The notes under the pieces: model-generated | What the model saw: only the letters and a program-made list of their open reading frames with translations | What the model was told of the DNA's origin: nothing | Database searches by the model: none | In this document: piece after piece, positions 290-37,265 of the stretch | Layout: every line of letters begins with the position of its first letter | Numbering within the stretch: position 1 is the stretch's first letter | Translations under genes and position numbers: made by a program | Source of the DNA: a virus | Length of the DNA stretch: 54,793 bases | IMG/VR virus record: IMGVR_UViG_3300012920_000001 | Span: 1 to 54,793 of that record | Strand: one strand, 5' to 3'

Positions 290-2404
290 TTAGAACGGCA
301 GATCCTCATCGTCTAATCTATCGTTGGTAATTTTTTGTTCGTTGATAAACAATCCGTGAGTCTGTCTACCCTTCTGATCTGGCAGTGGCACGTTCTCTAC
401 AATCCCCTCACCGATCAGGTGATCTATGGCCTCTGTCTTTCGAGACTGCGATCCTGATACACCGCCTTTGGTTGATGACAGCCGTTCATAATAGGAGCGA
501 GACTGACCCGGTTCTTTTCTAATCAACCGGACCAATGCGTCACATAATTCTTGTAACTTCTCATTGGCCTTGTTCAGCTTTGCCCTATCCTTGCTCGACT
601 TGCGTTCACCATCTTTGAGTGGACGGGCATAGGCGTGAGTGAAGTACAATATATCATCGTAACCCAGAACGTCCTTATGGTGTTCGCTGTTGGACACCAG
701 TGTAAACGTTAGCTCTTGATAGTCTGTGGGGAAACGCACTTTAGTCGCTTGCAAAATACGATCTTCTGTCTCAGAATCCCGGAACATAGTGTAAACGCCC
801 TGCGCATCTCCGGTCCATGCACTGGCACCCCGTGGAGATAACATATCGGACTCACCAGAACCCAATGCTTTGGCAGTGTGGGCTATAATTATGATGGGGA
901 ACCCATCGAAGTTTTCCTTCAAAGATGCCATGACTTTGCCAACTTCGCTGTTGTCATTTTCTGATTCGATATCAAACACACTGTTAGCCGTATCAAACAT
1001 AACCAATGGCAATGCGTGATAAGTTCCTCCGTCAGCCATTTCGTTTGGATAGGTCCACTCTCGATATTCGTCTGCTACTTGTGCTACGATGTCAGCTTTA
1101 AGCCTACGGGCTGGGATCACCTTCACTGAATCAAAGTCTTCCTGTCGTGCTCCGGTGTTACCAAACGTGGCTACACTGTAAATGATGCGCTGTACCTGAA
1201 CCACTGACTCAGTGATGATTATTACATTGCGACGAATGCTCGGTATTAACTCGTAGTCCACCGGATAAATATGAGCAACGCTTAACGCAAGTGGTATCGC
1301 CAAGGTTGTTTTACCTACACCCGGAGCACCTGCTAAGACATTTATGCCAGTAGACATAAAGTCGTTAAAGATGTATTCAAAAGTTGTGACGGAATGACTT
1401 CCTGATCCTTGGTCATTCTGAAGCGATAGCGGGTGGACTTCTTCCACCACTCCACGGCCTGTTGCCGACGAAGTCCATCCGTTGTCGATTGCTGAACGAA
1501 ATATAGATTTGAACGTGATACTATGAGGATGGTCCAGTACATCCCATTTTTTACGCGACGAACTGGCATCAAATTTGGGGGAGCGTGAACTCCAATCCAT
1601 CCAGACTGAATATCCGTTTTCGCCATATGGTTTTAACGCCATACCGACTTGGACCCATGTGTCATAGGGGTCTGAATCAATATAAGTTAGAGCTTCTCGG
1701 AGATCATCAAAGGTTTGTGCGGTCGCTACAGGCACCCCAGACTTCTCGACCATTTCATATGCTTCAGTCTTGGCTCGTGCTCTGTCGGATATAAACTTTG
1801 GCAACTCCGATGGTGTAACCGGATTGACACTAGCTATCGGTGACTGATTGTCTTTCCACTTGTACGGACCCAACTCACCCATGCTTGGGGCAACGACAAT
1901 GTATCCGTGGTGCTTCAAGTCTAGGCCCGGTCCAATGCTACTCGGATACGATGTGTTTTCCTCAGCCCTAAACAAACGATGCTCACCGCCTGATTGGGTG
2001 ACTGCTACACAGGTTGAATATAAAACTCCGTGCTCTTGCTCAATCTTTTCGAGCGTTGTGTCTCCACCGTTTCTAGGATCAATGTCTAAAGCAATGAGAC
2101 CGGAGTCTGCCAAGCTAATTCCAATATTTGCCGTTGGGTCAGTGCTGAACCAATCTCTAATCATATCTGGATTAGTTGTTGCGTCGAGATGACCCCGTGG
2201 AGTTAAATTACTTTGCGGGTGTTTACCCGGTTTATGACCCGGAGCATCGTTTGGCAATCCACACCGACACGTTCCGTCCTCGTGATTAATTCCCCACACT
2301 GGTAGAACCGCCCAACCTAAGTCGGCATACTGCAAAGCACAATCAAGCGTTGTTACTGGTTTATCTACGATCTTAAAGATATGTTTCTTTGGCGGTCTAC
2401 TCAT
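290..2404 (-). CDS. Bifunctional primase-polymerase / RecA-fold helicase
   Basis: This 704-residue replication protein probably makes primers and unwinds the phage replication fork. Residues about 15-200 match the archaeo-eukaryotic prim-pol fold: LDIDPRNGG supplies the paired metal-binding aspartates (D107, D109), SGGEHRLFR a conserved His (H142), and GPGLDLKHHGYIVVAPS the third acidic residue. Residues about 230-310 resemble the PriCT-type linker domain. Residues about 340 onward form a RecA-like ATPase with Walker A GAPGVGKT (359-366) and Walker B LPLVMFD (D471), followed by IIIIAHT. The C-terminal tail looks like a winged helix for DNA binding. The gene overlaps the upstream helicase by 8 bases. 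Confidence 0.9.
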   Translation of the reverse strand: MSRPPKKHIFKIVDKPVTTLDCALQYADLGWAVLPVWGINHEDGTCRCGLPNDAPGHKPGKHPQSNLTPRGHLDATTNPDMIRDWFSTDPTANIGISLADSGLIALDIDPRNGGDTTLEKIEQEHGVLYSTCVAVTQSGGEHRLFRAEENTSYPSSIGPGLDLKHHGYIVVAPSMGELGPYKWKDNQSPIASVNPVTPSELPKFISDRARAKTEAYEMVEKSGVPVATAQTFDDLREALTYIDSDPYDTWVQVGMALKPYGENGYSVWMDWSSRSPKFDASSSRKKWDVLDHPHSITFKSIFRSAIDNGWTSSATGRGVVEEVHPLSLQNDQGSGSHSVTTFEYIFNDFMSTGINVLAGAPGVGKTTLAIPLALSVAHIYPVDYELIPSIRRNVIIITESVVQVQRIIYSVATFGNTGARQEDFDSVKVIPARRLKADIVAQVADEYREWTYPNEMADGGTYHALPLVMFDTANSVFDIESENDNSEVGKVMASLKENFDGFPIIIIAHTAKALGSGESDMLSPRGASAWTGDAQGVYTMFRDSETEDRILQATKVRFPTDYQELTFTLVSNSEHHKDVLGYDDILYFTHAYARPLKDGERKSSKDRAKLNKANEKLQELCDALVRLIRKEPGQSRSYYERLSSTKGGVSGSQSRKTEAIDHLIGEGIVENVPLPDQKGRQTHGLFINEQKITNDRLDDEDLPF

Positions 2405-4049
2405 CCCATATCTCCTTGATCACATTCCACCATGCTTTATTCCTCGGTGATCGTTTGAGTAAAACAAAATTAGGTCTTCGCGCATTCTTAATTTGGTAGG
2501 ATGCCGTGCGTGGGTTTGGCAACGGTAATCGAACTATCATTCTCCGTCTACGAAAAAATTCGTGCGCTCGATTATTTTGTCTAGAGTTACTCGTATCGAT
2601 AAATTGTGTAGCATCGATCCGAACTCCGTTTTCCGTCTCACACACATATTTCACTGTTATGTAGCTGACGTTTCCATTGACCCAACCTGAGCAGTCGTGA
2701 ACTTTGGCTTTGATGATTGACTCATCTGTAGCTAGTTCCCCCGTAAGGGGATCAATAATCTCCAACGTTTTGACACCGGGAAAAACTCGACGCTCTTTTT
2801 TGACGTGTGGCCTGACAGGAGTCTGAGCTTGCACAACATTTCCTGACTTTTCATCCTTATAGTTTGGCATCATCTGGACTCCACCCAGACGCATGAAATT
2901 CCCTACATAATCAAGCACCAGACAATCAGTCTTACCCTCAGCCAATCGTGTCCCACGGCCCATAATTTGAACCCAGAGACTTGAGGACAATGTCGGACGT
3001 AAACAAACGATGCAGTCGAGCCGTGGCAGATCAAACCCTGTAGTCAGCATATCCACCGACACGAGCGCATTTGATTTTCCTGATGTCACTCTTTCAAAAA
3101 TTTTATCGCGTTGGTCCTTTTTGTGATGACCGTAAACCTGACAACTCTTTCGGTTCGTATGTTCCCATAACAAATGTGCAAACCTCGTGGCTATCTTCAC
3201 CGAGGTGCAGTACACCGCAATAAACTTACGGTCCTCGAATTGATTGAGGGATTTTGCAACGGCAACCAACCAAGCATCATACTCTGCCCGATGCATGACC
3301 CTGTCTAATTCCATTTTATTGTAATCACCTTTTCCGGTGATAGTCACTTCATCGAGATTTAATTGAAGCTCCGAGTTGAGGCCCACCAGTGGTGCGAGGT
3401 AACCTTCCTCGACCCCTCGCTTTACATTATACTGAAAACTATTTCTATCAAACCAGTGACGATCACTGTTGCTGTCACTGCCAGTATCATCAGGGCTTCC
3501 ACTGCTACTATTTCCATCTGTTTTCTCCTTGCAAATTGGTCCGTTATCCATACGCCACGGAGTAGCTGTAAAGGCTACCCGTTGTGCTTCCGGATAAAGT
3601 TTAAAAATTTTTTCATATTGGCTTTTGCCTGACGGGGTCATCGGTACTCGATGGGCCTCATCAATAATGATAATGTCTGGTGAGGGGATGTCATATTGAT
3701 GGACGGTTTTGCGATAGGCATAATTCTCAACCGTCTGGATCGTCCCAAAAATAACTGATTCTTCGAAGTCCCAACGCCCTACTGGTCTCAACCCTGAGCA
3801 CACAACACCCGAACGGCACGCAAATTTGAAATGCTTTTCCCAAGTCGCGTGGTTTTGCTCTGTGAGTTTTAGATTGTGGGTCAGAACCCAAACTCTTTTC
3901 TTATATGTCGATACAAGTTTGGCAGCTAAATCACAAATGACAACTGACTTTCCAGTGCCAGTTGCCATCGTGATACACGGGTTATACCCTTGCTTGAGGT
4001 CTTCGATACAGGCTCGTGTCGCTTCAAGCTGATACTCTCGGAGCCTCAT
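2397..4049 (-). CDS. Superfamily 2 DEAD/DEAH-box helicase
   Basis: The 550-residue protein is a DNA or RNA helicase/translocase of the SSL2/type III restriction helicase kind. The Q-like RLREYQLEA start, Walker A MATGTGKS (28-35), DEAH box (130-133), TAT motif (AFTATPWR) and motif VI (QIMGRGTRL) are all present in the usual order. A Ser/Asp/Gly-rich insertion near residues 175-200 separates the two RecA lobes. The last 150 residues form an extra domain of unknown role. The ATG overlaps the TGA of the gene before it. The neighbouring prim-pol suggests replication or recombination. No nuclease partner is visible, so a restriction role is unlikely. Confidence 0.88.
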   Translation of the reverse strand: MRLREYQLEATRACIEDLKQGYNPCITMATGTGKSVVICDLAAKLVSTYKKRVWVLTHNLKLTEQNHATWEKHFKFACRSGVVCSGLRPVGRWDFEESVIFGTIQTVENYAYRKTVHQYDIPSPDIIIIDEAHRVPMTPSGKSQYEKIFKLYPEAQRVAFTATPWRMDNGPICKEKTDGNSSSGSPDDTGSDSNSDRHWFDRNSFQYNVKRGVEEGYLAPLVGLNSELQLNLDEVTITGKGDYNKMELDRVMHRAEYDAWLVAVAKSLNQFEDRKFIAVYCTSVKIATRFAHLLWEHTNRKSCQVYGHHKKDQRDKIFERVTSGKSNALVSVDMLTTGFDLPRLDCIVCLRPTLSSSLWVQIMGRGTRLAEGKTDCLVLDYVGNFMRLGGVQMMPNYKDEKSGNVVQAQTPVRPHVKKERRVFPGVKTLEIIDPLTGELATDESIIKAKVHDCSGWVNGNVSYITVKYVCETENGVRIDATQFIDTSNSRQNNRAHEFFRRRRMIVRLPLPNPRTASYQIKNARRPNFVLLKRSPRNKAWWNVIKEIWDE

Positions 4050-4240
4050 TCGGTTGAACCATCTCTAAGAGACGATATTGGTTTTACGGGTACTGGGTTT
4101 TTAAATTCCTCACGAAGTTGTCGGGCAAGCTCCAACACTTGCCCTCGTGAGCTAACAGGCACGACCACCTCTACCCTGACAAGACCCTTATCTTTTGAAG
4201 TAGCCCTATAATTTGAGTTGTAACCAGATTGCTTTTCCAT
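4046..4240 (-). CDS. Small unknown protein
   Basis: The 64-residue product is unrecognised. It has a Lys/Arg-rich first half and a middle that reads VVVPVSSRGQVLELARQLREEF, which suggests a beta strand followed by a helix. Its TGA overlaps the ATG of the helicase gene, so the two are probably translated together. A helper role for the helicase is possible but is only inferred from position. Confidence 0.55.
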   Translation of the reverse strand: MEKQSGYNSNYRATSKDKGLVRVEVVVPVSSRGQVLELARQLREEFKNPVPVKPISSLRDGSTE

Positions 4241-4241
4241 T

Positions 4242-4562
4242 TTAAAAATCCCTTTTTGCTAGTTGATACCAAAGTTCTCTACCGTAATCTTCACCCAATC
4301 GTCCTTCCAAAGCATCGTGAAAATTGTTGGAAGACTCATGCTTATTAAGTGCATGAAACGCACTCAATTCTTCAACGAGATTATAATCATCCTTGACAAA
4401 AAATCTCATGGCCTCAGTGATGAGCCAATCCATCACCTCGTGCCGAGGAATTTTATACGATGCACAAAAGTCATGGATGATTGGTAAAAGGTTGGGGCTG
4501 ATGTTGTTGAAAACATCAGCCTGAACAGTCACTGCCGAGGTAACTTTTGCAGACTTGCTCAT
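4242..4562 (-). CDS. Small helical protein, unknown
   Basis: The 106-residue product has no domain I recognise. Residues about 25-55 read as helical (IHDFCASYKIPRHEVMDWL) and could be a DNA-binding or dimerisation helix pair of the ribbon-helix-helix or HTH kind, but no clear motif is seen. The start ATG overlaps the previous stop by one base (TAATG), indicating coupling. It belongs to the operon driven by the spacer-operator promoter at 4914-4942. It is one of few candidates here for a small regulator. Confidence 0.55.
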   Translation of the reverse strand: MSKSAKVTSAVTVQADVFNNISPNLLPIIHDFCASYKIPRHEVMDWLITEAMRFFVKDDYNLVEELSAFHALNKHESSNNFHDALEGRLGEDYGRELWYQLAKRDF

Positions 4563-4876
4563 TACGCAACTCCCTTCAAGTAATGAGTTGCCAACGCTGA
4601 CTCAGGTCTTACGACAATCGTCGTGACAGGCTTTTCAGTTGTGTGAGCCTGAAGAAACTGACGCGATACCTTTGCCTTGAGAGCTGCAATGTCAACGTTC
4701 TTACGATTGTGTGTGCGAACCTGAATGGTGCAACCGTGACCTGCGATGTCAATGTTGTCACCGCGAGACTTGAACTCTGCATGGAGTTCTTTCTTGCGTG
4801 CGTTAAGAGCTTTGAGTTGACCTTCGATGGCAAGTAACTCATCGGCGGCTGTGTAAAGATCAAATAAAGTTTCCAT
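4562..4876 (-). CDS. Small coiled-coil protein, unknown
   Basis: This 104-residue protein opens with a heptad-like helix (residues about 5-35, ending in LNARKKELHAEFKSRG), followed by a short beta-rich section. It is the first gene after promoter 4914-4942 and has a strong ACGGAGA ribosome-binding site 7 bases before its ATG. It starts the operon of two more small genes, the helicase and the prim-pol. An alternative frame gives an 84-residue open frame on the same strand, but it lacks this start signal. Function unknown. Confidence 0.6.
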   Translation of the reverse strand: METLFDLYTAADELLAIEGQLKALNARKKELHAEFKSRGDNIDIAGHGCTIQVRTHNRKNVDIAALKAKVSRQFLQAHTTEKPVTTIVVRPESALATHYLKGVA

Positions 4877-4913
4877 GTCGTTATCTCCGTTTTAAGTTAT
4901 AAGTTATACAAGT

Positions 4914-4942
4914 GTTATAGCACCTACTCCGGAAGTAGTCAA
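4914..4942 (-). promoter_or_regulatory. Leftward promoter with operator in spacer (site 1)
   Basis: Read on the minus strand, TTGACT (4942-4937) and TATAAC (4919-4914) are separated by 17 bases. The spacer and its edge hold the near-palindrome CTACTTCCGGAGTAG (4938-4924). The transcript then carries an AACTTAAAACGGAGA leader before the ATG at 4876. Three other promoters share this arrangement, so a common regulator acting between the -35 and -10 boxes is inferred. Confidence 0.75.
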
Positions 4943-4946
4943 CACT

Positions 4947-4971
4947 AAAAAAGGGGCCGAAGCCCCTTTTT
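4947..4971 (-). terminator. Rho-independent terminator with UUCG loop
   Basis: On the minus strand the sequence reads GGGGC-TTCG-GCCCC followed by six T residues, and the A run before it extends the stem. It lies just after the gene ending at 4991 and directly upstream of promoter 4914-4942, so it separates two leftward operons. The flanking A and T runs could make it work in both directions. Confidence 0.85.
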
Positions 4972-4990
4972 GTTAAATTGTTTCTCTCCC

Positions 4991-5434
4991 TCAATATTCT
5001 TTTTTGTGACCGAGCTTTTCATTTGCCATGTAGCCTTGATGATACTCGTTCAATTCAAAGTTGCTCATATCTTTTGGCAACACTGTCTCACGCTTATCAT
5101 CAATCCACTTATGGTAATGTGGACTGAATGGTCTTTGGTAGTAACTGTCTGCACCACCACGATCATAGGGTGACCCATGACCCCGAACCCATTCTTCAAG
5201 CCCCTCTCTTCTCGCGTCGTTGAATTTTTTCATACCTCGTTTTCCTTTTTTCTCGTGCCATTTTACAAGTGCTTCGCGTCTTCCAGTAGAATACTCTAGG
5301 TCGCAAATTTTCGAAGCGAAACCATCTGCCATTTCTATACACTGTTTTCGTTTTTCTTCGGTTGGTGCTGAGGCGCTAAGTTCTAACGCAAGAACAAAAG
5401 CCTCGTAATCATTCGTTGGTGCTTTGAATGTCAT
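4991..5434 (-). CDS. Unknown protein
   Basis: The 147-residue product is charged and soluble, with a helical first half (residues about 10-60, rich in Ala/Glu/Lys) and a His/Tyr-rich second half (HGSPYDRGGADSYYQRP). No domain is recognised. Its ATG overlaps the TGA of the gene before it (ATGA), and it is followed by the UUCG-loop terminator, so it ends a two-gene operon begun by the promoter at 5690-5718. Confidence 0.6.
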   Translation of the reverse strand: MTFKAPTNDYEAFVLALELSASAPTEEKRKQCIEMADGFASKICDLEYSTGRREALVKWHEKKGKRGMKKFNDARREGLEEWVRGHGSPYDRGGADSYYQRPFSPHYHKWIDDKRETVLPKDMSNFELNEYHQGYMANEKLGHKKEY

Positions 5435-5661
5435 ATCGCAACCCTCTTAATTTGATTGAACTGTGTATTTAGCAACTTGTGTCTGTTACCCATTATGTCG
5501 CAAACGTGTGTCCACTTCCTTCCACTTTTGGCCCATATATTGCGATGCCCACAACCGATGCGTGGCAGTTCGTCTTTTAAATGCACCCCCATAAAAGTCG
5601 CGCCTTTTAAATTTTTGGGTGGTTTTTTTTCGAAAGGAAGTTTTGGCATTTTGAATTTCAT
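5431..5661 (-). CDS. Small basic protein, unknown
   Basis: The 76-residue basic protein begins MKFKMPKLPFEKKPPK and ends with a cluster of basic and hydrophobic residues. The frame is open up to 5718, but the ATG at 5661 is chosen because an ACGGAGA site stands 7 bases upstream and the region above it is a promoter. Residues about 40-50 (PRIGCGHRNIW) carry a lone Cys/His pair. No family is recognised. It is the first gene of the operon controlled by the perfect palindromic operator at 5697-5714. Confidence 0.6.
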   Translation of the reverse strand: MKFKMPKLPFEKKPPKNLKGATFMGVHLKDELPRIGCGHRNIWAKSGRKWTHVCDIMGNRHKLLNTQFNQIKRVAI

Positions 5662-5689
5662 ATTCGTTCTCCGTTTTAAGTTATCCCTA

Positions 5690-5718
5690 ATCGTACCACT
5701 ACTCCGGAGTAGTGTCAA
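5690..5718 (-). promoter_or_regulatory. Leftward promoter with perfect palindromic operator (site 2)
   Basis: On the minus strand TTGACA (5718-5713) and TACGAT (5695-5690) are 17 bases apart. The spacer is an almost entire perfect palindrome, CACTACTCCGGAGTAGTG (5697-5714), the best copy of the element shared by four promoters. The downstream leader AACTTAAAACGGAGAA matches the others. The palindrome overlaps the last codons (TTPE-stop) of the preceding gene, so coding and control are superimposed. Confidence 0.78.
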
Positions 5719-6001
5719 ACAAATTTACAACTTTTAATTCAGCGACCTGACGATTCGATCCCAAATTTCTAATTGTTCGGATGCAACCGTCGATGGTGTA
5801 ATCACCGTTAAGAAAATTTTTGACGGTCTGAATCAGATCACCCTTCGTGCCGATCATCAACTCTTGGACGATGGAGTCAAGGGGCATCCCCAACTCCAAC
5901 GCCTCAGCCCGTGCCTCAGCAACCGTATCAAACCAACGGGTGTCGTTTGCCATGTCAAACCCACTCCGCATTTTGTTCTCAATTACCCTGTACATTCTCA
6001 T
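5699..6001 (-). CDS. Unknown protein
   Basis: The 100-residue product is not recognised. It has alternating helices, with WFDTVAEARAEALELGMP near residues 23-40 resembling the small phage proteins that follow a substituted 'field' pattern. Its ATG overlaps the stop of the SprT-like gene by the ATGA arrangement, so the two are coupled. The final codons double as the operator of the next promoter. Confidence 0.6.
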   Translation of the reverse strand: MRMYRVIENKMRSGFDMANDTRWFDTVAEARAEALELGMPLDSIVQELMIGTKGDLIQTVKNFLNGDYTIDGCIRTIRNLGSNRQVAELKVVNLFDTTPE

Positions 6002-6495
6002 GCCGCTAACCTCGCTTTGTTTGTGTTGACCAATTCTCTTCGCAAAATCCGGTAGATCCTTTGCCAGTTCTGACCGTGAGGTGTGTTGTCACCATTACGC
6101 AACCACCGTGTAGTATCCCAATAGTTGTAGTGAATCATGTGAGCCACTTCATGCGCTACCGTCAGCATCAATGCATCCTCTGGCGTTGCAAACTCCATTT
6201 CTCCGATCACGGGATCATTTTTAATCCGAGCATACTCATGGACGAATGTGTCACCCTTGCGAAATCGAGCAACGTCGATGCATACATAATTTTCGCCGCC
6301 ATAAGATCGCTGACCTTTACATTTAATTTTGAGGTACAACTTATCCCAGACATCAGCCATTGTGAGACGCTTGGAATTTGGCCCCGTGATCTCCCACTTG
6401 GCTTTTACAATCTCCTTGATGCATTTTTTGGTAAGGCGTTTCACCAAGTCGCGTTCCGCAGTGGTGACGTTTTTAGACTTCTTGATCAATCCCAT
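5998..6495 (-). CDS. SprT-like zinc metalloprotease
   Basis: The 165-residue protein carries the zinc-protease motif HEVAH in VAHEVAHMIHYNYW (near residue 115), preceded by an N-terminal helical segment (ERDLVKRLTKKCIKEIVKA) and a beta strand, the SprT/Spartan layout. Family members cut proteins, including DNA-bound proteins, in the cytoplasm. A C-terminal zinc ribbon is not seen. It is the first gene after the promoter at about 6535-6565 and has ACGGAGA before its ATG. A role in clearing host proteins from DNA is inferred, not shown. Confidence 0.78.
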   Translation of the reverse strand: MGLIKKSKNVTTAERDLVKRLTKKCIKEIVKAKWEITGPNSKRLTMADVWDKLYLKIKCKGQRSYGGENYVCIDVARFRKGDTFVHEYARIKNDPVIGEMEFATPEDALMLTVAHEVAHMIHYNYWDTTRWLRNGDNTPHGQNWQRIYRILRRELVNTNKARLAA

Positions 6496-6534
6496 ATCGG
6501 GTCTCCGTTACAGTTATAAGTTCTCGTTATTCTT

Positions 6535-6565
6535 ATAGTATTACATTTTCCGGAGTAGATGTCAA
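6535..6565 (-). promoter_or_regulatory. Leftward promoter with operator half-site (site 3)
   Basis: On the minus strand TTGACA (6565-6560) is followed by TCTACTCCGGA, the same element as in sites 1, 2 and 4 but with the right arm degraded to AAAATG. The -10 is less clear: TACTAT at 6540-6535 gives a 19-base spacer, AATACT gives 17. The leader then includes AACTTATAACTGTAACGGAGA before the SprT-like start at 6495. Confidence 0.62.
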
Positions 6566-6619
6566 GTCCTGGGTTAACCTATTGATTTTAAACACTTTTT
6601 TTGGCCTAAAAAATAGGTG

Positions 6620-6649
6620 TTGACAAAAAATGCAAATTATTTCTATTTT
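6620..6649 (+). promoter_or_regulatory. Candidate rightward promoter for the replication block
   Basis: TTGACA (6620-6625) is followed after 18 bases by TATTTT (6644-6649) in a very AT-rich stretch. It is back to back with leftward promoter 6535-6565 and is the only clear sigma70-like signal before the rightward genes at 6777 and beyond. The -10 match is partial. Confidence 0.5.
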
Positions 6650-6663
6650 TAGTCTCCATCTCA

Positions 6664-6753
6664 GTATCCCAGAGCTTGGTCCGACGAGTTCTGGGGTACA
6701 AGATGGGCTCATATTACTTCCAAATACTCCCCAGAGGCTGCAACTTCTGGGGA
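6664..6753 (+). promoter_or_regulatory. Leader with two related hairpins (possible attenuator)
   Basis: Hairpin one pairs GTATCCCAGA (6664-6673) with TCTGGGGTAC (6690-6699), a 10-bp stem with one G-T wobble. Hairpin two pairs TCCCCAGA (6728-6735) with TCTGGGGA (6746-6753). Because the arms share CCCAGA/TCTGGG, arm 2 can also pair with arm 3, and arm 1 with arm 4. There is no T run after either hairpin. The element lies between the promoter and the first rightward gene, so control of transcription or translation is inferred. Confidence 0.6.
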
Positions 6754-6776
6754 ACCTTTATAACTGAGAACTAATA

Positions 6777-6962
6777 ATGAATAATATGTACGGAACAATT
6801 TTTCTAGCGTTGGTGTTGGTACTCTTTTACCTAGCCGTGCATTCCTATTTTTTTACCGAAGATTTAGCCTTTAACTTTCAGGAGTTCGAGCATTATTGCT
6901 ATATGGTTAATCAAGGGGCATGGCCTGACTACAAACGGCTAGGCGCGGAGTGTACGCCATGA
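6777..6962 (+). CDS. Small membrane protein
   Basis: The 61-residue protein has one strong transmembrane segment (residues about 7-25, TIFLALVLVLFYLAVHSYF) and a short acidic, aromatic tail that probably faces the cytoplasm or periplasm. It is the first rightward gene and its TGA overlaps the ATG of the DNA polymerase gene, so it is translated with it. No family is recognised. It could anchor replication at the membrane or act as a leader peptide for polymerase translation. Both are guesses from position. Confidence 0.6.
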   Translation: MNNMYGTIFLALVLVLFYLAVHSYFFTEDLAFNFQEFEHYCYMVNQGAWPDYKRLGAECTP

Positions 6963-8779
6963 GCACTTGGGTATTTGATGTTGAGGTCTATCCTAACTGC
7001 ACGTTATTTCTAGCTAAGTGTATTGAGACAAATGAACGGCAGTCGATCTGGCACAGTGAGTCTGGGTCAGCTACTCGGTTGCGTGTATTCGTCGGTGACA
7101 AAGATAAAACGTTTGTAGGTTTCAATAGCTATCATTATGACAGTGTTATTGTTTCTGCTTGGTGTAAAGGCTTAGACACCGAGACAATCAAACGAATAAG
7201 TGACGCAATTATCGTTGAAGGTATTTCCTCGTTCCAAATCAAAACCGAATATAAACTGAACGATGTCTTAAACGATCACATTGATTTGATTGAAGTTGCA
7301 CCAAGTTTTGTCGGGCTTAAAGCCTATGGAGCACGAATGAATATGCCGATGCTCCAAGATCTACCCTATGATCCCAATGCAGATTTAGACGATGACCAAC
7401 AAAATATTTTGGAGTCATATTGCCTTAATGACATAGCAACGACCGAGCAATTATTCAAACGACTGGAACCGGAGCTAGAACTTCGACTGCAAATGTCGAA
7501 GCAATATGGCATCGACCTCCGAAGCAAGTCAGATAGTCAAATGGCTGAACAAGCATTTAAAAAAACGTTGAAATTGAAATCTTATGAAGTGCCAATTCCA
7601 AACTCGATCACCTACGATCCACCGGAATATCTCAAAATGGACTTTGCAGGCACGCAATCTGTTTTAGAAGATATTGCTGACATGAAATTTTATGTCGATA
7701 AAAAGTCCGGTCATGTTAAAATGCCTGACAGTTTGGATAAATTAGAAGTCTATACACGGACGGGAAGTTATAAGCTTGGCATCGGGGGATTGCATTCGAC
7801 CCATGATAAACGGGTTACTCACCTCGCACGCGACGAATTAATCTACGAGATCGATGCGGCCAGTTTTTATCCAACGATTATTCTTAACGGAAATCTATCA
7901 CCATCGCACATCGGGGATCGTTTCATTAACGAGTATCGTCGTATCTATGATGAACGTATCCAAGCAAAAAGCAAAGGTGATAAGGTTACGGCAGACACTT
8001 TAAAAATTAGTTTGAATGGCACCTTTGGTAAGTTAGCTAGTCCTCATAGCATCCTGTATGCTCCAGACCTTATGTTAGCTGTCACAATGACAGGACAATT
8101 TACTTTGTTGATGCTCATTGAAATGTTAGAGCGCGAAGGTGTTACCGTGCTATCTGCAAACACTGATGGTATCGTAATTCGTGTTGCAGACTATAATGAA
8201 CAAAGCGTCCGGTGGTGCGTGCAAGAATTTGAAGAGTTGAGTGGTTTTACTTTTGAATATACACCATACGAAAAAATTGCGTTTAAAGATGTTAACAACT
8301 ACATCGCAGTCAAAAAAGACAAAACAGTTAAGGCCAAAGGCATTTACGCTCCGGTGTCATTGCGAAAAAATCCCACTGCCCCAGTGTGTGCTTATGCTGT
8401 AGGTCAGTGGCTTGCCCGTGGCACGAGCTTTGAGCGAACCATAGAAAAGGCTTCATTTGATATGTTCATCACTGCCAGAAACGTAGCTGGTGGTGGGGTA
8501 CAAGGTGGTAAATATTTGGGCAAGGTTGTCCGGTGGTATCAGTCAAACAAAACAACAGACCCGATTCTGTACGCAAAAAATAATAATAAAGTTCCAAAGT
8601 CAGACGGAGCACAAGCTTGTATGCACGTTGTTCCGAGTGATTGGTCAGAAAAGCCTGACGATTTGGATACACAGTGGTACATCAACGAATGCATCGACAT
8701 AGCACATAATATCGGTGCCGAGCACTTTCTTGATGTGACAGAAATTTTCATGGCAAATTTTGGAGTTAGAAATGGCTAA
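6959..8779 (+). CDS. Family B DNA polymerase
   Basis: This 606-residue protein is the replicative DNA polymerase. The 3'-5' exonuclease domain shows Exo I FDVEVY (D7, E9), Exo II GFNSYHYD (N56, D61) and Exo III YCLND (Y154, D158). The YxGG-like LGIGGL follows at 273-278. The polymerase domain has motif A EIDAASFYP (D299), motif B KISLNGTFG (K349 to G357) and motif C SANTDGI (D403). Motif C reads N-T-D-G rather than the usual D-T-D-S; the catalytic second Asp is kept. It is short for the family. The ATG at 6959 is chosen over 6950 because it has GGAG upstream and overlaps the preceding stop. Confidence 0.92.
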   Translation: MSTWVFDVEVYPNCTLFLAKCIETNERQSIWHSESGSATRLRVFVGDKDKTFVGFNSYHYDSVIVSAWCKGLDTETIKRISDAIIVEGISSFQIKTEYKLNDVLNDHIDLIEVAPSFVGLKAYGARMNMPMLQDLPYDPNADLDDDQQNILESYCLNDIATTEQLFKRLEPELELRLQMSKQYGIDLRSKSDSQMAEQAFKKTLKLKSYEVPIPNSITYDPPEYLKMDFAGTQSVLEDIADMKFYVDKKSGHVKMPDSLDKLEVYTRTGSYKLGIGGLHSTHDKRVTHLARDELIYEIDAASFYPTIILNGNLSPSHIGDRFINEYRRIYDERIQAKSKGDKVTADTLKISLNGTFGKLASPHSILYAPDLMLAVTMTGQFTLLMLIEMLEREGVTVLSANTDGIVIRVADYNEQSVRWCVQEFEELSGFTFEYTPYEKIAFKDVNNYIAVKKDKTVKAKGIYAPVSLRKNPTAPVCAYAVGQWLARGTSFERTIEKASFDMFITARNVAGGGVQGGKYLGKVVRWYQSNKTTDPILYAKNNNKVPKSDGAQACMHVVPSDWSEKPDDLDTQWYINECIDIAHNIGAEHFLDVTEIFMANFGVRNG

Positions 8780-9086
8780 AGTTTATATTGTCCAAGCTCA
8801 CAATAATAAGGATATGTCGGATGCCAAACGACACGGAGAACTACACGTTTTATACCCCAACCACATACATCGACCATACGACACTGATTACCTGACAGGC
8901 GTTGCTCATACTCAATTGAGGGATTTTTGTGAGGATGATTTTTTACTGCTACTCGGTGATCCCGCTATTTGTGGGATGGTAACCAAAGTGGCATCTGAGT
9001 ATTCCCCAGTGGTACGGATGCTAAGTTGGAACCGGATCAAACAAGAGTATCACGAGGTAGCATGGGATTTTGCAGATGCGGATTGA
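8772..9086 (+). CDS. Unknown protein
   Basis: The 104-residue product has no domain I recognise. It starts MAKVYIVQAHNNKDMSDAKRHGEL and has the alternating strands and helices of a small alpha/beta protein, with a central acidic stretch (CEDDFLLLLGDPAI). The ATG at 8772 is chosen because GGAG lies 6 bases upstream. It overlaps the end of the polymerase gene by 8 bases, which implies coupling. It lies between polymerase and recombination genes, so a replication role is likely. Confidence 0.6.
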   Translation: MAKVYIVQAHNNKDMSDAKRHGELHVLYPNHIHRPYDTDYLTGVAHTQLRDFCEDDFLLLLGDPAICGMVTKVASEYSPVVRMLSWNRIKQEYHEVAWDFADAD

Positions 9087-9115
9087 CAACCGCTTATTTC
9101 ATAAAGGAGAAAAAA

Positions 9116-9868
9116 ATGTCAAAAAAGAAGGCTGACTTTGAAAGTCAATTAAGAAGAGGTAAACAAAAAAAACCGCCTCGCATTTGTATCTATGGAGATC
9201 ACGGGATTGGAAAGTCAACATTGGCTAGTCACTTCCCAGATCCAATCTTCATAAGCACTGAGGACGGTCTAGACACACTGGACGTTGTTTCATTTGAACG
9301 TGCGGAGTCTGCAACAACGGTTGCTGAAAACATTCAGACTTTATTGTCTGGGGAGCATACTTTCAAAACGTGTGTGATCGACTCCGTTGATTGGCTTGTC
9401 GAGCCTTTGATCGTTAAATCCGTTGAAGATACTTATGACGCAAAGGAGTTGTCATACGGTAGGGATAAGGTCAAAGTATGTGAGGAATTTCGTGAGATCC
9501 TTCAGGGTCTTGATTATCTTCGGGAGCACCGTGGGATGAATGTTGTGTTAATAGCTCACAGTGCAGTCATAAAATTCGAAGATCCTCGCACGGAACCGTT
9601 CGATAAATATGAACCTAAGTTGCCAAAGTATTGTAACTCTCTGTTGCAAGAGTGGGTTGATGCTTTGTGCTTTGCAGCATTCGACGTTGTAATCCGCAAG
9701 TCGGATACTGGGTTCAACACAACGAAAAACCGTGGGGTATCGAGTGGTGATCGTTTCTTACACTTCCAACCCAACCCAGCTTTCGCCGCCAAAAATCGTT
9801 TTGATTGTCCTGATAAGATCGAAATGAATTTTGACAATTTATCTGAAGTCATCCCAGTATTTAGCTAA
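9116..9868 (+). CDS. Sak4-like RecA-fold ATPase (phage nucleotide-binding protein)
   Basis: The 250-residue protein has Walker A YGDHGIGKST (26-35) and Walker-B-like residues in CVIDSVDWLVE, with a later VVLIAHS strand. This is the pattern of phage AAA/RecA-core proteins of the Sak4 type, which promote annealing and recombination of single-stranded DNA with a partner SSB. The DUF669-type gene that follows is the usual partner. The start at 9116 has AAAGGAGA upstream and replaces an upstream ATG at 9026 that lies in the previous gene. Confidence 0.82.
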   Translation: MSKKKADFESQLRRGKQKKPPRICIYGDHGIGKSTLASHFPDPIFISTEDGLDTLDVVSFERAESATTVAENIQTLLSGEHTFKTCVIDSVDWLVEPLIVKSVEDTYDAKELSYGRDKVKVCEEFREILQGLDYLREHRGMNVVLIAHSAVIKFEDPRTEPFDKYEPKLPKYCNSLLQEWVDALCFAAFDVVIRKSDTGFNTTKNRGVSSGDRFLHFQPNPAFAAKNRFDCPDKIEMNFDNLSEVIPVFS

Positions 9869-9878
9869 GGAGATAGTT

Positions 9879-10355
9879 ATGCCTAAATTTGGATTTAACC
9901 CAAGTGAGGTTGCACCTCAAGAACCAATGAGCTTTGAATTGTTACCCAAAGGTGAATACACTCTTCGGGCTACAGATGCCGAAGAACGTCCAACTAAAAA
10001 CAATGGTGAATTGATTGCTGTTACGTTTGAGGTAGCATCCGGTTCGTATGAAGGACGCAAAATCTGGTTTCAATTTAATACTAAAAATGCATCAGAAACA
10101 GCCGAGCGCATTGGTCATCAACAATTAGTTGCGTGGGCTACAGCGTGCGGTAAACCGGAAGCAGATGACACAGATGATCTGTTAGAAAGACCGTTTCAAG
10201 CTAATATCGTTATTGAAAAAGGCACTAACGGTTATGCTGATAAAAACAAGATCGCCTCGTTTCTGTTTTCCAAATCTAAGGCCAAGGCTCCAGTAGCGAA
10301 GTCTGAACCACCAAAGAAAGAAACTAACGGTGGTAGTAAATGGAAAATTGATTAA
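9879..10355 (+). CDS. DUF669-type single-stranded DNA-binding protein
   Basis: The 158-residue protein matches the small phage family next to Sak4-like ATPases: PMSFELLPKGEYTLRATDAE, then EGRKIWFQFNTKNASETAERIGHQQL with a beta-rich core, and a disordered Lys/Pro-rich tail. These proteins are thought to act as SSB-like partners in recombination. The start at 9879 has AAGGAGA upstream. A strong hairpin follows the stop at 10355. Confidence 0.78.
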   Translation: MPKFGFNPSEVAPQEPMSFELLPKGEYTLRATDAEERPTKNNGELIAVTFEVASGSYEGRKIWFQFNTKNASETAERIGHQQLVAWATACGKPEADDTDDLLERPFQANIVIEKGTNGYADKNKIASFLFSKSKAKAPVAKSEPPKKETNGGSKWKID

Positions 10356-10361
10356 ACAAAC

Positions 10362-10390
10362 GCCCGTGGTGAAAGCCACGGGCATCTTTC
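10362..10390 (+). terminator. Hairpin, likely terminator
   Basis: GCCCGTGG (10362-10369) pairs perfectly with CCACGGGC (10376-10383) over a 6-base loop. It is followed by ATCTTTCT, a weak T tract, so termination is probably partial. It lies in the 46-base gap between the DUF669-type and Cas4-like genes and would lower expression of the two genes after it. Confidence 0.65.
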
Positions 10391-10401
10391 TGGATTGAGT
10401 T

Positions 10402-11229
10402 ATGGTTGCTATACCACCATCAGTTGAAAAACAAATTATCAAAAATATTTATCAGTCCTATCAAAAAAATCAGCCACTGTATTTTACTCGGTTAGGTGCA
10501 TCAAGCATTGGCACCGAATGTATCCGAAAGATATATTTTCAATGGCGTAACTTTGCCAAAAAACAATTGGACGGACGCATACTCCGTCTGTTTGAAACCG
10601 GATATATACAAGAAGATCGTATTATAAAAGATCTGCATAACTCTGGCTTAGAAGTCTGGGCAGTTGATGAATATGGCAGTCAGTTTGAATTTACAGACTC
10701 GACGGGTCATTTTGTCTGTCGGGCTGATGGCGTTGTGCGTAACGTGCCTCGTAACTCTGAGGCTCACTTGCTTGAAGTAAAAACTCATAACAAAAAAAGT
10801 TTCAGTGCTTTGCAACGTCACGGTGTAAAAGAATCAAAACCGGAGCACTATGCCCAAGTTCAAATCAGTATGGCGTTGGGAAATTTTCAACGTGGTCTTT
10901 ACGTTGCAGTGTGTAAAGATGACGAACAATTCTACGTGGAGCGTATTAAACCAAGTGCAAGAGATCAAAAGAACTTACAGAAACGCATTACATCGCTGTT
11001 AAACGCCCATATGAGGCCGACAGGCATCAGTGATGACGGAAGTGCATTTCAGTGTAAATGGTGTGATATGCGTAGCGTTTGTATCAAAGAAGAAAAACCA
11101 CTGGTGCATTGTAGAACTTGCCAAAATTCTATACCAAGTCATAATGGGGAATGGCATTGCACTTTGCATGATGCGACTTTGACCCCACAGAATCAACTCG
11201 TTGGTTGCGAGGATTATACAGCGTTATGA
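10402..11229 (+). CDS. Cas4-like PD-(D/E)XK nuclease with iron-sulfur cysteines
   Basis: The 275-residue protein is a RecB-family nuclease that probably trims DNA ends in recombination. D109 (in CRADGVV), E125 and K127 (in LLEVKTH) form the PD-(D/E)XK site, and YAQVQISMAL gives the motif IV Gln. Cys40 with C218-x2-C221-x5-C227 matches the 4Fe-4S cluster of Cas4 and AddB. A further C/H-rich segment after residue 235 may bind zinc. It has no CRISPR array or other Cas gene nearby, so a role in adaptation is not supported. Its stop overlaps the RuvC-like start. Confidence 0.82.
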   Translation: MVAIPPSVEKQIIKNIYQSYQKNQPLYFTRLGASSIGTECIRKIYFQWRNFAKKQLDGRILRLFETGYIQEDRIIKDLHNSGLEVWAVDEYGSQFEFTDSTGHFVCRADGVVRNVPRNSEAHLLEVKTHNKKSFSALQRHGVKESKPEHYAQVQISMALGNFQRGLYVAVCKDDEQFYVERIKPSARDQKNLQKRITSLLNAHMRPTGISDDGSAFQCKWCDMRSVCIKEEKPLVHCRTCQNSIPSHNGEWHCTLHDATLTPQNQLVGCEDYTAL

Positions 11230-11714
11230 TTACGATTGGCATAGATCCGGGTCTGAGAGGGGCCATTGGAATCCTAGATAATGGACAGTTTAAATCCGTA
11301 CACGACATGCCAGTGATGAATAAAGGTGGTGGTAAGGTCAAATGGGAAGTTGATGTGTCAGCTACGATCAACTTACTACGACAAAATAGTCGTAAGGAAG
11401 GTGAACCTGAAGATTTTATTTCGTGCGCTATTGAACGAGTTAACGCCCATCCGGGTCAGGGAGTTTCAAGCGTATTTAGCTTGGGTGATTCTTTCGGCAC
11501 TGCTCGTGCTTGCGTGGCTAGTTGCCGATTCGAGTTGCGTTATGTGATGCCCCAAGTGTGGAAAAAACATTTTGGATTATCGGCAGATAAAGAACAGGCC
11601 AGAGCAGTTGCCCTGACCTTGTTTCCCGATGCTCCAATTAATTTAAAAAAGCACGCAGACCGAGCCGAGTCCTTGTTGATGGCTAGGTGGTTGTGGGAGA
11701 CGGAGTTTGAATAG
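11226..11714 (+). CDS. RuvC-like Holliday junction resolvase
   Basis: The 162-residue protein has the RuvC/RNase H fold: first strand ITIGIDPGLRGAIGIL with catalytic D7, an acidic residue in AIERV (E70) and the C-terminal HADRAESLLMA with D145 and E148. These enzymes cut four-way DNA junctions before packaging. The ATG at 11226 overlaps the preceding TGA, and the earlier ATG at 11205 lies inside that gene. Its last 32 bases overlap the oppositely oriented Mom-like gene. Confidence 0.85.
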   Translation: MITIGIDPGLRGAIGILDNGQFKSVHDMPVMNKGGGKVKWEVDVSATINLLRQNSRKEGEPEDFISCAIERVNAHPGQGVSSVFSLGDSFGTARACVASCRFELRYVMPQVWKKHFGLSADKEQARAVALTLFPDAPINLKKHADRAESLLMARWLWETEFE

Positions 11715-12351
11715 GTTGCTTTGGATAGCTATCCAAAATTTTATACCTCAACGCTTTTCTTAAATCCTTTTTCTCGCGTTTGCTTCCTAGAAAGTAAATG
11801 TATCGATGTTTTTGAGATCGCTCTACAACCTCATATTTTTCTGGGTCAGCTATCCGTTCTTCTAACGTGCTCTGTGACACGATAGTCTTAGAGTGCAAAT
11901 TAGAGCCACGGACAACCCATTCAGTTCTTTTGGCACTTATACCAGTGTAAACAAAATTGAGTGCTTGATAGATCACTCCTGTATGGTCTTGAGCCGTATC
12001 AGCGTAGGAGACAACTACTTTTGGTCTTGGCAATAGTTTAAGAGCACGACTAACCAGAAAAGACGCTTCGTTTTTCAAATTGTCACGAAGCACAAGTCGG
12101 TTGAGTTCGATGACGTTTTCCTTGTGTTCCACGCCACAGACCCCCTCACACAACGAGGGTGATGGTGGTGTACCAAAAGAAACAATCCCCACAAGTGGCC
12201 CGATACGGAACAAGTCGTGAGGATTGTCACCCTTTTTAAATAACCCAAATGCCCAACTTATAGAGGGTACTCGCCTCGCATAGTGGATATCCAATATGAA
12301 AGGCAAGCAATCTCTATAGTTGATAGGCTCGACGTTATATTCGCTCTCCAT
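11683..12351 (-). CDS. Mom-like DNA modification protein
   Basis: The 222-residue protein resembles phage Mu Mom, the GNAT-fold enzyme that modifies adenine in phage DNA to resist restriction. Shared features include SLCEGVCG near residue 85, NVIELNRLVLRDNL, ASFLVSRALKLLP and VVSYADTAQDHTGVIYQALNFVY. It lies 2 bases after the zinc-motif gene in a two-gene operon run by the promoter at 13177-13205. It faces and overlaps the RuvC-like gene, with no terminator between. The exact modification and target site are not known. Confidence 0.8.
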   Translation of the reverse strand: MESEYNVEPINYRDCLPFILDIHYARRVPSISWAFGLFKKGDNPHDLFRIGPLVGIVSFGTPPSPSLCEGVCGVEHKENVIELNRLVLRDNLKNEASFLVSRALKLLPRPKVVVSYADTAQDHTGVIYQALNFVYTGISAKRTEWVVRGSNLHSKTIVSQSTLEERIADPEKYEVVERSQKHRYIYFLGSKREKKDLRKALRYKILDSYPKQPIQTPSPTTT

Positions 12352-12353
12352 TC

Positions 12354-13148
12354 TTAATTGCTCACTTGAGAAATGACAGCTTTTCTTGGTCTTTTAAAAA
12401 ACCCAAACTTAGCATCTTTTTCAGACGGTGTTACAGATGCTGTAAAAGTAATATGATCACCTTTACCAACGGTTAGAAGTTTACCCTCTTCATTGAAAAT
12501 GGTTGGCACAGAACCCCAAACTACAAAACCGTTTCGATGATCTTTTACTGTCATTTTTGCGACTTGACCAAATCGAGTATCTTTCAAAGCAACTTTAAGC
12601 ACTTCACCAGAAACATTAACTGTTCCCGTTGGTACATCTTGAGCTTTGGCTTTTTCCTTAGCCCATTGCGCTTCACGCTCTGCTTGCTTTTCTGCAAATG
12701 TCAAACCACCAGTAATTTCACGCTGTCTTGCTAACCTTTTTTCTACACGAAGAGCATCTCTTTCCTCTCTCTTTCTACGGGCTGTCTCGCGTCTTTTTGC
12801 ACGAGTTTCAGGAGAGGTTTTGAAAGCACGTTTTCCAACACCGCCACAGTCCCAACATTTTTTGTCTAATACACCCCATGCGACAAAACCTATACCATCA
12901 CATTTGCCACAATTCTCCCACCAAACTTTTTTGACTTTTTCACCAAGGCCAGTACCGTTACATGGCTCACAAATTTTGCCAACAATAGGTCCAGCTTTGT
13001 TAGCTCTAGAAAATTCAATAAGGTGTTCTGATCCAACCCTTGCAAAAAGATCAATTTTCGTAAAACCCTTACCCTCACACTTCAAGCATGATTTGATGTC
13101 GAGTCCGTCTTGATTGTTATCTGGAATGTTATGTTTCGTGCAAGTCAT
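12354..13148 (-). CDS. Protein with four DnaJ-type zinc motifs
   Basis: The 264-residue protein has four CxxCxGxG-like motifs: C21/C24, C60/C63, C80/C83 and C98/C101. This is the DnaJ cysteine-rich domain pattern, without a J domain. A long basic helix (about 115-165) and a beta-rich C-terminal domain (about 185-264, perhaps OB-like) follow. It may bind nucleic acid or partner proteins. The start at 13148 is chosen for the ACGGAGA site and promoter above it. It directly precedes the Mom-like gene, as zinc-binding Com precedes mom in Mu, though it does not resemble Com in sequence. Confidence 0.75.
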   Translation of the reverse strand: MTCTKHNIPDNNQDGLDIKSCLKCEGKGFTKIDLFARVGSEHLIEFSRANKAGPIVGKICEPCNGTGLGEKVKKVWWENCGKCDGIGFVAWGVLDKKCWDCGGVGKRAFKTSPETRAKRRETARRKREERDALRVEKRLARQREITGGLTFAEKQAEREAQWAKEKAKAQDVPTGTVNVSGEVLKVALKDTRFGQVAKMTVKDHRNGFVVWGSVPTIFNEEGKLLTVGKGDHITFTASVTPSEKDAKFGFFKRPRKAVISQVSN

Positions 13149-13176
13149 CTCAGTTCTCCGTTTCAAGTTATTCTTA

Positions 13177-13205
13177 TTTATAACAACTTCCGGAGTAGAT
13201 TGCAA
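13177..13205 (-). promoter_or_regulatory. Leftward promoter with operator in spacer (site 4)
   Basis: On the minus strand TTGCAA (13205-13200) and TATAAA (13182-13177) are 17 bases apart, with CTACTCCGGAAGT in the spacer (13198-13186). The leader AACTTGAAACGGAGAA matches sites 1 and 2. It drives the zinc-motif and Mom-like genes and lies directly after the lysozyme stop, about 6.7 kb from the other three copies. Confidence 0.75.
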
Positions 13206-26559: not shown

Positions 26560-26925
26560 TTACTCTGAACTCTCTTCCGAGCTTTCCTCAGAACTTTCTG
26601 CCGCCGCTGCATTAGCCGCTTCAATTTCAGCTAATTGTGCTTCTCTCTCTGCATCAAGTTCTGCTTGAAGTACAGCGGGATCTTTCCAATCTGGGTTAGC
26701 TGTCCAAGTTGTTCCGTCGAACATATATTTGTTACCAGCCCATGTTTCAGATGGCCCCTCGATATTTTCGTACAATGTACAGTCATGCTTGCTATGACAA
26801 CCGACATAAAGATCAGGGTTATTTACTGGACCTATTGTAATTCTATCTTCTTCCATAAGAATCTGTTTGTCATCTTCGTAAAGAAATTTACTTAATTTTG
26901 TAGAATTTTCCACGATGGTTTTCAT
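26560..26925 (-). CDS. Small protein with acidic repeat tail
   Basis: The 121-residue product has a beta-rich first half and a helical Ala/Glu-rich C-terminal half ending in the repeated SSEESSEESSE. No domain is recognised. The acidic tail may be disordered. It is between the adaptor and the first beta-propeller gene, with a one-base overlap. It may be a chaperone or cap for the fibres, a guess from place only. Confidence 0.55.
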   Translation of the reverse strand: MKTIVENSTKLSKFLYEDDKQILMEEDRITIGPVNNPDLYVGCHSKHDCTLYENIEGPSETWAGNKYMFDGTTWTANPDWKDPAVLQAELDAEREAQLAEIEAANAAAAESSEESSEESSE

Positions 26926-36854: not shown

Positions 36855-37265
36855 TTACCAAGACTTTCTTTTAAATTGGGCATCACCGGGCATTGCCTTG
36901 AAACCACCTTTTGATTTCATGGAACCGCCTTTCATCATGCCTTTACTCTTCATGGAACCACCACGCATCATGCCTTTGGTTTTCATAGAACCACCACGCA
37001 TCATGCCTTTGGTTTTCATAGAACCACCACGTTTCATATCCATCGTTCCGACAGACTGATAAGCTCTACGGCCCATAGCTTTTTCCATACCCTTGCTTTC
37101 ATCTCTACGAGACTTCATGCTCTGGGATTTGGAAGACTCTTTGCCTCTTCTCATACCGAGAGATTCGTCAAGCCTTGCGTTGTAGCCTTGTTTCTTACCG
37201 CCCTTGGCATAGCCTTTGGACTTCATCATTCTTTTGCCGCCTTTGGCATAACCTTTAGATTTCAT
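36855..37265 (-). CDS. Highly basic repeat protein
   Basis: The 136-residue protein is made of Lys, Gly and Met. It has two copies of MKSKGYAKGGK at its start (residues 1-24) and an 11-residue repeat four times near the end. It has an ACGGAGA site before its start. Basic composition suggests binding to packaged DNA. Similar proteins are seen in marine phages. The role is not known. Confidence 0.65.
   Translation of the reverse strand: MKSKGYAKGGKRMMKSKGYAKGGKKQGYNARLDESLGMRRGKESSKSQSMKSRRDESKGMEKAMGRRAYQSVGTMDMKRGGSMKTKGMMRGGSMKTKGMMRGGSMKSKGMMKGGSMKSKGGFKAMPGDAQFKRKSW
36900..37028 (-). repeat. 33-nt tandem repeats inside basic-protein gene
   Basis: Four repeats of 33 bases (11 residues, GGSMKTKGMMR type) fill residues 80-122 of the basic protein. 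Two copies are identical and two have small changes (MKSKGMMK). The repeats keep the reading frame. Confidence 0.85.

What the first reader, a model, noticed from the sequence alone, without database searches (positions are those of the whole stretch)
4914..13205. Four leftward promoters with a shared palindrome inside the -35/-10 spacer
At 4914-4942, 5690-5718, 6535-6565 and 13177-13205 the minus strand has a TTGACA-like box, then (T)CTACTCCGGA(AGT) in the spacer, then a -10 box at 17 bases (19 or 17 at the third). The second copy is a perfect 18-bp palindrome, CACTACTCCGGAGTAGTG. Each leads to a gene with an ACGGAGA ribosome-binding site. They would control the SprT-like gene, two small-gene operons, the helicase/prim-pol group and the Mom-like pair. 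I know of no named operator of this kind. The regulator could be one of the small genes here or a host protein. Blocking or bending within the spacer is the obvious mechanism, as in MerR-type sites, though the spacing is not theirs.
Basis: seen in the sequence. Interest (0 to 1): 0.78.

Follow-up and report, generated by a model that had tools for sequence, protein, structure and literature searches.

The report
Phage operator inside promoter spacers
An uncultivated, probably marine, phage places the same short palindrome between the two RNA-polymerase boxes of four early promoters, and a sister phage group has swapped it everywhere for a different palindrome, which points to a phage-made switch protein controlling these genes and evolving together with its binding sites.

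Summary
All four sites are there, each inside a 17-bp spacer. The 9-mer TACTCCGGA occurs nowhere else in the window, and a matrix scan separates the four sites (23-28 bits) from everything else (13.5 or less). Corrections: at site A the motif is inverted (canonical strand is +), and site C has a 17-bp spacer. In about 16 related IMG/VR contigs, 25 distinct promoter versions keep the motif, the 17-bp spacer and nearly always a TGn extended -10. A sister group (PrimPol 63%, terminase 89% identical) lacks the motif. The homologous promoters and other small-gene promoters there carry a different spacer palindrome (CCCTA..TAGGG, 8 sites in 47 kb), and neither group has the other's operator at a promoter. 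One small gene with its RBS is 98% identical between groups, yet each copy sits behind its own group's operator. The motif is not enriched in cellular genomes. Best reading: a phage-encoded repressor binds in the spacer and blocks initiation, much as Arc does at P22 Pant. The candidate is the orphan 106-aa gene 4242-4562, which sits in an operator-controlled operon in both groups and is only 33-39% conserved. Ribbon-helix-helix membership was tested and not established. The regulator's identity and the direction of regulation are inferred.

The parts
4914..4942 (-). Promoter/operator A: -35 TTGACT, 17-bp spacer with CTACTTCCGGAGTAG (inverted copy; + strand CTACTCCGGAAGTAG 4924-4938), TGC, -10 TATAAC; leads the p104/p106/p64/helicase/PrimPol operon
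   Evidence: conserved in L122, L123, L124, L127, L157, L020, L162-L164
4947..4967 (-). Intrinsic-terminator-like GGGGC-TTC-GGCCCC-TTTTTT just upstream of promoter A, marking A as the start of a separate transcription unit
   Evidence: read from sequence
5690..5718 (-). Promoter/operator B: TTGACA, perfect 18-bp palindrome CACTACTCCGGAGTAGTG (5697-5714), -10 TACGAT; leads genes 5431-5661 and 4991-5434
6537..6565 (-). Promoter/operator C: TTGACA, CTACTCCGGA in a 17-bp spacer, TGT, -10 AATACT; leads SprT-like gene and 5699-6001
13177..13205 (-). Promoter/operator D: TTGCAA, CTACTCCGGA in a 17-bp spacer, TGT, -10 TATAAA; leads DnaJ-zinc-domain-like gene and Mom homologue
4242..4562 (-). p106, candidate regulator: orphan 106-aa protein, invariant basic N-terminus plus two-helix core; inside operon A
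4562..4876 (-). p104, first gene of operon A, conserved orphan
4046..4240 (-). p64, small conserved orphan next to the helicase; second-choice regulator candidate
290..4049 (-). Helicase (2397-4049) and PrimPol (290-2404), distal genes of operon A
5998..6495 (-). SprT-like protein (HEVAH), first gene of operon C
11683..13148 (-). DnaJ-central-domain-like gene (12354-13148) and Mom homologue (11683-12351), operon D

Best explanation
The four sites are operators of one phage regulon. Shown: a strongly conserved palindromic element sits inside the 17-bp spacer of sigma-70-type promoters (TTGAC, TGn extended -10) that head the replication, SprT, Mom and small-gene units; in a sister clade the same promoters, and others there, all carry a different palindrome in the same place. 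Inferred: a phage-encoded dimeric DNA-binding protein binds there and stops host RNA polymerase from using these promoters once the protein has accumulated, shutting off early genes and its own operon (negative autoregulation). Most likely protein: p106 (4242-4562), inside operon A here and downstream of an operator-bearing promoter in the sister clade. It works like Arc at P22 Pant, but p106 is not shown to be a ribbon-helix-helix protein.
For: Only four sites in 54.8 kb and no other place above 13.5 bits; 25 distinct versions in relatives, all with a 17-bp spacer. In the 50-kb relative G005 the 9-mer occurs only at these promoters. Sister clade: 8 promoters in G011 and 6 in L212 with CCCTA..TAGGG in the same slot, none with TACTCCGGA; the one CCTA..TAGG hit in a clade-1 record (G005 7197) does not follow a TTGAC box. 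Both operators share half-site CTA[CA]T, so an orthologous regulator with shifted specificity fits. An 81-aa cassette gene plus RBS is 97.7% identical between L162 and L184 (sprT DNA 84%) but each lies behind its own clade's operator. The motif is not enriched in cells: 2 hits in the GTDB collection for TTGAC-N0-3-14-mer; 1 of 398 Pseudomonadota genomes has the 14-mer, with the reversed control at least as frequent. p106 is in every clade-1/2 record that spans its locus; it is 33-39% identical across clades against 63-89% for PrimPol, polymerase, SprT and TerL. Clade 3 lacks p106 and lacks such promoter sets. The modelled N-domain (pLDDT 77) is an extended N-terminus plus two helices; RHH repressors recur in its PDB hit list, though all with E > 1.
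Against: No binding or transcript data. p106 matches no Pfam DNA-binding family; hhalign against Arc/Mnt/CopG/NikR gives 1.3% probability; no Foldseek hit is significant. p104 and p64 diverge as much as p106 and co-occur with it, so the correlation does not single out p106. Activation instead of repression is not excluded. The host is unknown.
Confidence: 0.6

Rival explanations
1. The operators are read by a host regulator that the phage exploits, and the two phage clades infect hosts with different versions of it.
For: Phages do borrow host operators (general knowledge); the promoters are host sigma-70 type; the host is unknown and may be absent from the genome sets.
Against: Operator-in-promoter: 2 hits in the GTDB collection, at or below the roughly 7 that uniform chance would give. 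Among 398 Pseudomonadota genomes no genome has more than one TTGAC-N0-3-TACTCCGGA match and the reversed control is at least as frequent. The two clades share a 98% identical cassette, so they meet in the same cells or through intermediates.
Confidence: 0.17
2. A different small phage protein (p64 or p104, or a protein outside the early region) is the regulator, by the same spacer-blocking mechanism.
For: p64 and p104 are also in every complete record, in operon A, and diverge similarly between clades (35-37%).
Against: p64 is predicted by eye as one strand and one helix; p104 resembles the C-terminal region of a RecE-like family (E 0.001); neither looks like a sequence-specific DNA-binding dimer.
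Confidence: 0.2
3. Activator model: the bound protein reshapes the spacer and turns the promoters on, MerR-like, making these middle genes.
For: Palindrome between the boxes, as in MerR sites; sites A, B and D have imperfect -35 or -10 boxes.
Against: The spacer is always 17 bp, not the 19-20 bp that MerR activators correct; the operator centre varies by up to 2 bp relative to the boxes; TGn extended -10 present; no MerR-family gene found among the early small proteins.
Confidence: 0.12
4. The motif is simply part of a repeated promoter cassette copied around the genome, with no regulator.
For: The leader ATAACT(T)NNAACGGAGA is repeated at cassette starts, including some without a promoter.
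Against: The 10-mer core is kept in 25 versions while neighbouring spacer bases vary; site A carries it inverted; the sister clade holds a different palindrome in exactly the same slot.
Confidence: 0.04

Closest known systems
P22 Arc repressor at the Pant promoter (recalled; Arc-operator structures 1par/1bdv appear)
   Same: Small phage-encoded repressor with an operator between -35 and -10 of a phage promoter (location from memory, not retrieved here).
   Different: Here one operator is shared by four to eight promoters across the early region; the sequence is unrelated; p106 is not demonstrably RHH.
RelB/relO and other RHH autorepressors (PMC2812701)
   Same: Small N-terminal DNA-binding domain, palindromic operator with repeated short half-sites, autoregulation.
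   Different: No toxin partner seen; half-site CTACT versus [A/T]TGT[A/C]A hexads; regulon spread over several operons.
MerR-family activator promoters
   Same: Palindrome lies in the -35/-10 spacer.
   Different: 17-bp instead of 19-20-bp spacer, variable phase, no MerR gene found.
CRP-901/CRP-902 roseophages (PMC10149686)
   Same: Nearest cultured phages by terminase (47%), PrimPol and a helicase present, Mom homologue in CRP-902 (42%).
   Different: No TACTCCGGA or other shared spacer palindrome found; they carry an annotated HTH gene beside PrimPol instead.

Membership tests
Ribbon-helix-helix (Arc/MetJ/CopG) repressors, for p106 | Match to RHH sequence profiles | tested here: not met
   Pfam scans of p106 and sister-clade homologues show no RHH family; hhalign with Arc/Mnt/CopG/NikR 1.3%
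Ribbon-helix-helix (Arc/MetJ/CopG) repressors, for p106 | Strand plus two helices, dimeric | tested here: inconclusive
   AF2 N-domain: extended 1-14, helices 15-19, 22-32, 37-52, pLDDT 77, pTM 0.45; Arc, CopG, AmrZ, TacA1 among top PDB hits but E > 1; dimer not modelled
Ribbon-helix-helix (Arc/MetJ/CopG) repressors, for p106 | Binds its operator | not testable with these tools
   needs protein
Spacer-blocking operator (works like Arc at Pant) | Operator lies between -35 and -10 of sigma-70 promoters at several operons | tested here: met
Spacer-blocking operator (works like Arc at Pant) | Binding lowers transcription | not testable with these tools
   no expression data
MerR-type activator site | 19-20-bp spacer with fixed operator phase | tested here: not met
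   17 bp in every version; centre shifts by up to 2 bp
MerR-type activator site | MerR-family protein encoded nearby | tested here: not met
   no hit among early small genes
Host regulator operator (LexA or other) | Same operator recurs at promoters in cellular genomes | tested here: not met
   the true host may be missing from the sets
LuxR-type box | CT-N2-C-N6-G-N2-AG spacing (from memory) | tested here: not met
   CTACTCCGGAGTAG is two bases shorter than that spacing (sequence)

The most novel reading that the evidence does not exclude
A plug-in early-gene system in lytic phages: a clade-specific operator in the spacer plus a common leader/RBS lets accessory small genes be exchanged between phages at the leader while the resident operator, and so the resident repressor, keeps control. 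Different operator codes would define regulatory incompatibility groups, and the regulator would be a new DNA-binding family.
Probability: 0.3. Interest if true: 0.72.

Novelty: new variant of a known kind. Interest (0 to 1): 0.55.

Why it matters
It predicts, from sequence alone, a regulon, its operator code and a candidate regulator in an uncultivated, probably marine, phage group whose nearest cultured relatives infect an abundant Roseobacter lineage. It also supplies a natural specificity-switch pair (CTACTCCGGAGTAG against CCCTACT..AGTAGGG with 33-39% identical p106 versions) that makes regulator-operator co-evolution and cassette exchange directly testable.

Tried and rejected
No near-identical phage in INPHARED. 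p106, p64 and p104 have no homologue in INPHARED even at E 1. A loose pattern scan of viral contigs mostly returned chance hits. First AF2 model of full-length p106 was poor (pLDDT 62.5, pTM 0.34). PDB sequence searches with p106 gave only spurious hits. Literature search for the 14-mer: none. L170, the one non-clade hit of the strict viral scan, has no -10 box, no clade homologues and looks like chance. MerR, LuxR-box and host-operator readings rejected (see membership tests). RHH by eye was tempting ('GISRSELIREAL'-like stretch) but failed the profile test. RHH_1 examples sought in two bacterial genomes for a larger profile: none found. No tRNA genes to hint at the host.

Full report
OBSERVATION. 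In promoter orientation they read: A TTGACT-ACTTCCGGAGTAGGTGC-TATAAC; B TTGACA-CTACTCCGGAGTAGTGG-TACGAT; C TTGACA-TCTACTCCGGAAAATGT-AATACT; D TTGCAA-TCTACTCCGGAAGTTGT-TATAAA. Every spacer is 17 bp and every one ends in TGn, an extended -10. Site A carries the shared 10-mer on the other strand. TACTCCGGA occurs nowhere else in the window; a matrix from all known sites scores the four at 23-28 bits and nothing else above 13.5. An intrinsic-terminator-like hairpin stands directly upstream of promoter A.

CONSERVATION. The SprT protein, p106 and DNA patterns brought in relatives: L020, L045, L075, L122-L124, L126/L157-L159 (G005), L127, L162-L164, L171-L174, L176. In them TACTCCGGA occurs at the homologous promoters, and a fifth promoter appears in L122 and L123. 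There are 25 distinct promoter versions, all with CTACTCCGGA (or, on one strand of two B sites, TTACTCCGGA) in a 17-bp spacer. Downstream genes change while the promoter stays: site D leads to at least three unrelated first genes and site B to three.

NOT A CELLULAR OPERATOR. TTGAC-N0-3-CTACTCCGGAGTAG has 2 hits in the GTDB genome collection; by my arithmetic uniform chance would give about 7. The same kind of scan of IMG/VR gives 8 hits, 7 in this phage clade. In 398 Pseudomonadota genomes the 14-mer occurs in one, and the half-site pattern once each in 11; the reversed controls are at least as frequent.

THE SISTER CLADE. A PrimPol alignment reached relatives at 54-66% identity. One group (L184, L185, L186, L212, L216; G011 is 47 kb) shares TerL at 89%, SprT at 77% and PrimPol at 63% with the window but has no TACTCCGGA. 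Its sprT, p104 and dnaJ-like promoters and further small-gene promoters have CCCTA[AC]..TAGGG in the same 17-bp spacer: eight in G011, six in L212. The one CCTA..TAGG hit in a clade-1 record (G005 7197) does not follow a TTGAC box. Both operator types share half-site CTA[CA]T, for example CTACT-CCGG-AGTAG against CTACT-ACAT-AGTAG. An 81-aa gene (MANKYKVIK...) with its RBS is 97.7% identical between L162 (clade 1) and L184 (clade 2), while sprT DNA is 84% identical; each copy lies behind its own clade's operator. So the cassette moved and the operator did not. More distant relatives (clade 3) lack p106 and show no set of shared spacer palindromes.

THE REGULATOR. Inference. p106 (4242-4562) has a near-invariant basic N-terminus (MSK..KV.S.V.V) followed by two helices; it lies in operon A here and downstream of an operator-bearing promoter in clade 2; it is 33-39% identical across clades. 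An N-domain model (pLDDT 77, pTM 0.45) has an extended N-terminus and two helices. Foldseek lists Arc, CopG, AmrZ, TacA1, YiiF and SvtR among its PDB hits, none significant. Profile tests do not support RHH membership. p64 and p104 cannot be excluded by co-occurrence.

MECHANISM. Inference: a dimer on the palindrome covers the face between the hexamers and prevents open-complex formation. The spacer is already optimal and the operator centre moves by up to 2 bp relative to the boxes, which suits steric block better than MerR-style realignment. Because operon A includes p106, the circuit would be self-limiting: host polymerase reads the early units first, p106 accumulates, and all units shut down together.

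CONTEXT. Nearest cultured phages by terminase are the roseophages CRP-901/902 (47%; PMC10149686). They lack TACTCCGGA. The host of the window phage is unknown.

LIMITS. The IMG/VR contigs are mostly partial; sites in related contigs are not independent; no expression or binding data exist. The location of the Arc operator within Pant is from memory; searches of the open library did not retrieve a text for it.

Noticed in passing
window 6620-6776 (+): The rightward DNA-polymerase operon has a TTGACA promoter (6620) without the operator, followed by a leader with a CCCCAGA..TCTGGGG hairpin; a similar hairpin lies in G005 (L157 near 3350).
   Followed up: partly
L184 4205-4242: In the sister clade two other palindromes (AACCGTATTCGGTA and AACCGATTTCGGTT) lie between the sprT and polymerase promoters, possibly a second operator type.
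   Followed up: no
window 4877-4912, 5662-5690, 6496-6536, 13149-13180; L184 5635-5656: Leader ATAACT(T)NNAACGGAGA precedes each cassette gene, even ones without their own promoter in clade 2; it could be the joint at which cassettes recombine.
   Followed up: partly
window 26925-32565: Three consecutive large ORFs begin with nearly the same N-terminus (M/VxNLSDLLPSGGG...), probably duplicated tail-fibre-type proteins.
   Followed up: no
window 36855-37265: Low-complexity Lys/Gly/Met/Ser-rich repeat protein (MKSKGYAKGGK...) in the structural region.
   Followed up: no
window 290-2404 and 6950-8779: The phage carries both a PrimPol and a full-length phage DNA polymerase (phrog_1252), unlike the CRP-901 group, which is described as lacking a DNA polymerase gene.
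   Followed up: partly
window 11683-12351; L155 11527-12132: Mom-type modification homologue, also in Roseobacter phage CRP-902 (42% identity) where it is annotated only as hypothetical protein.
   Followed up: partly
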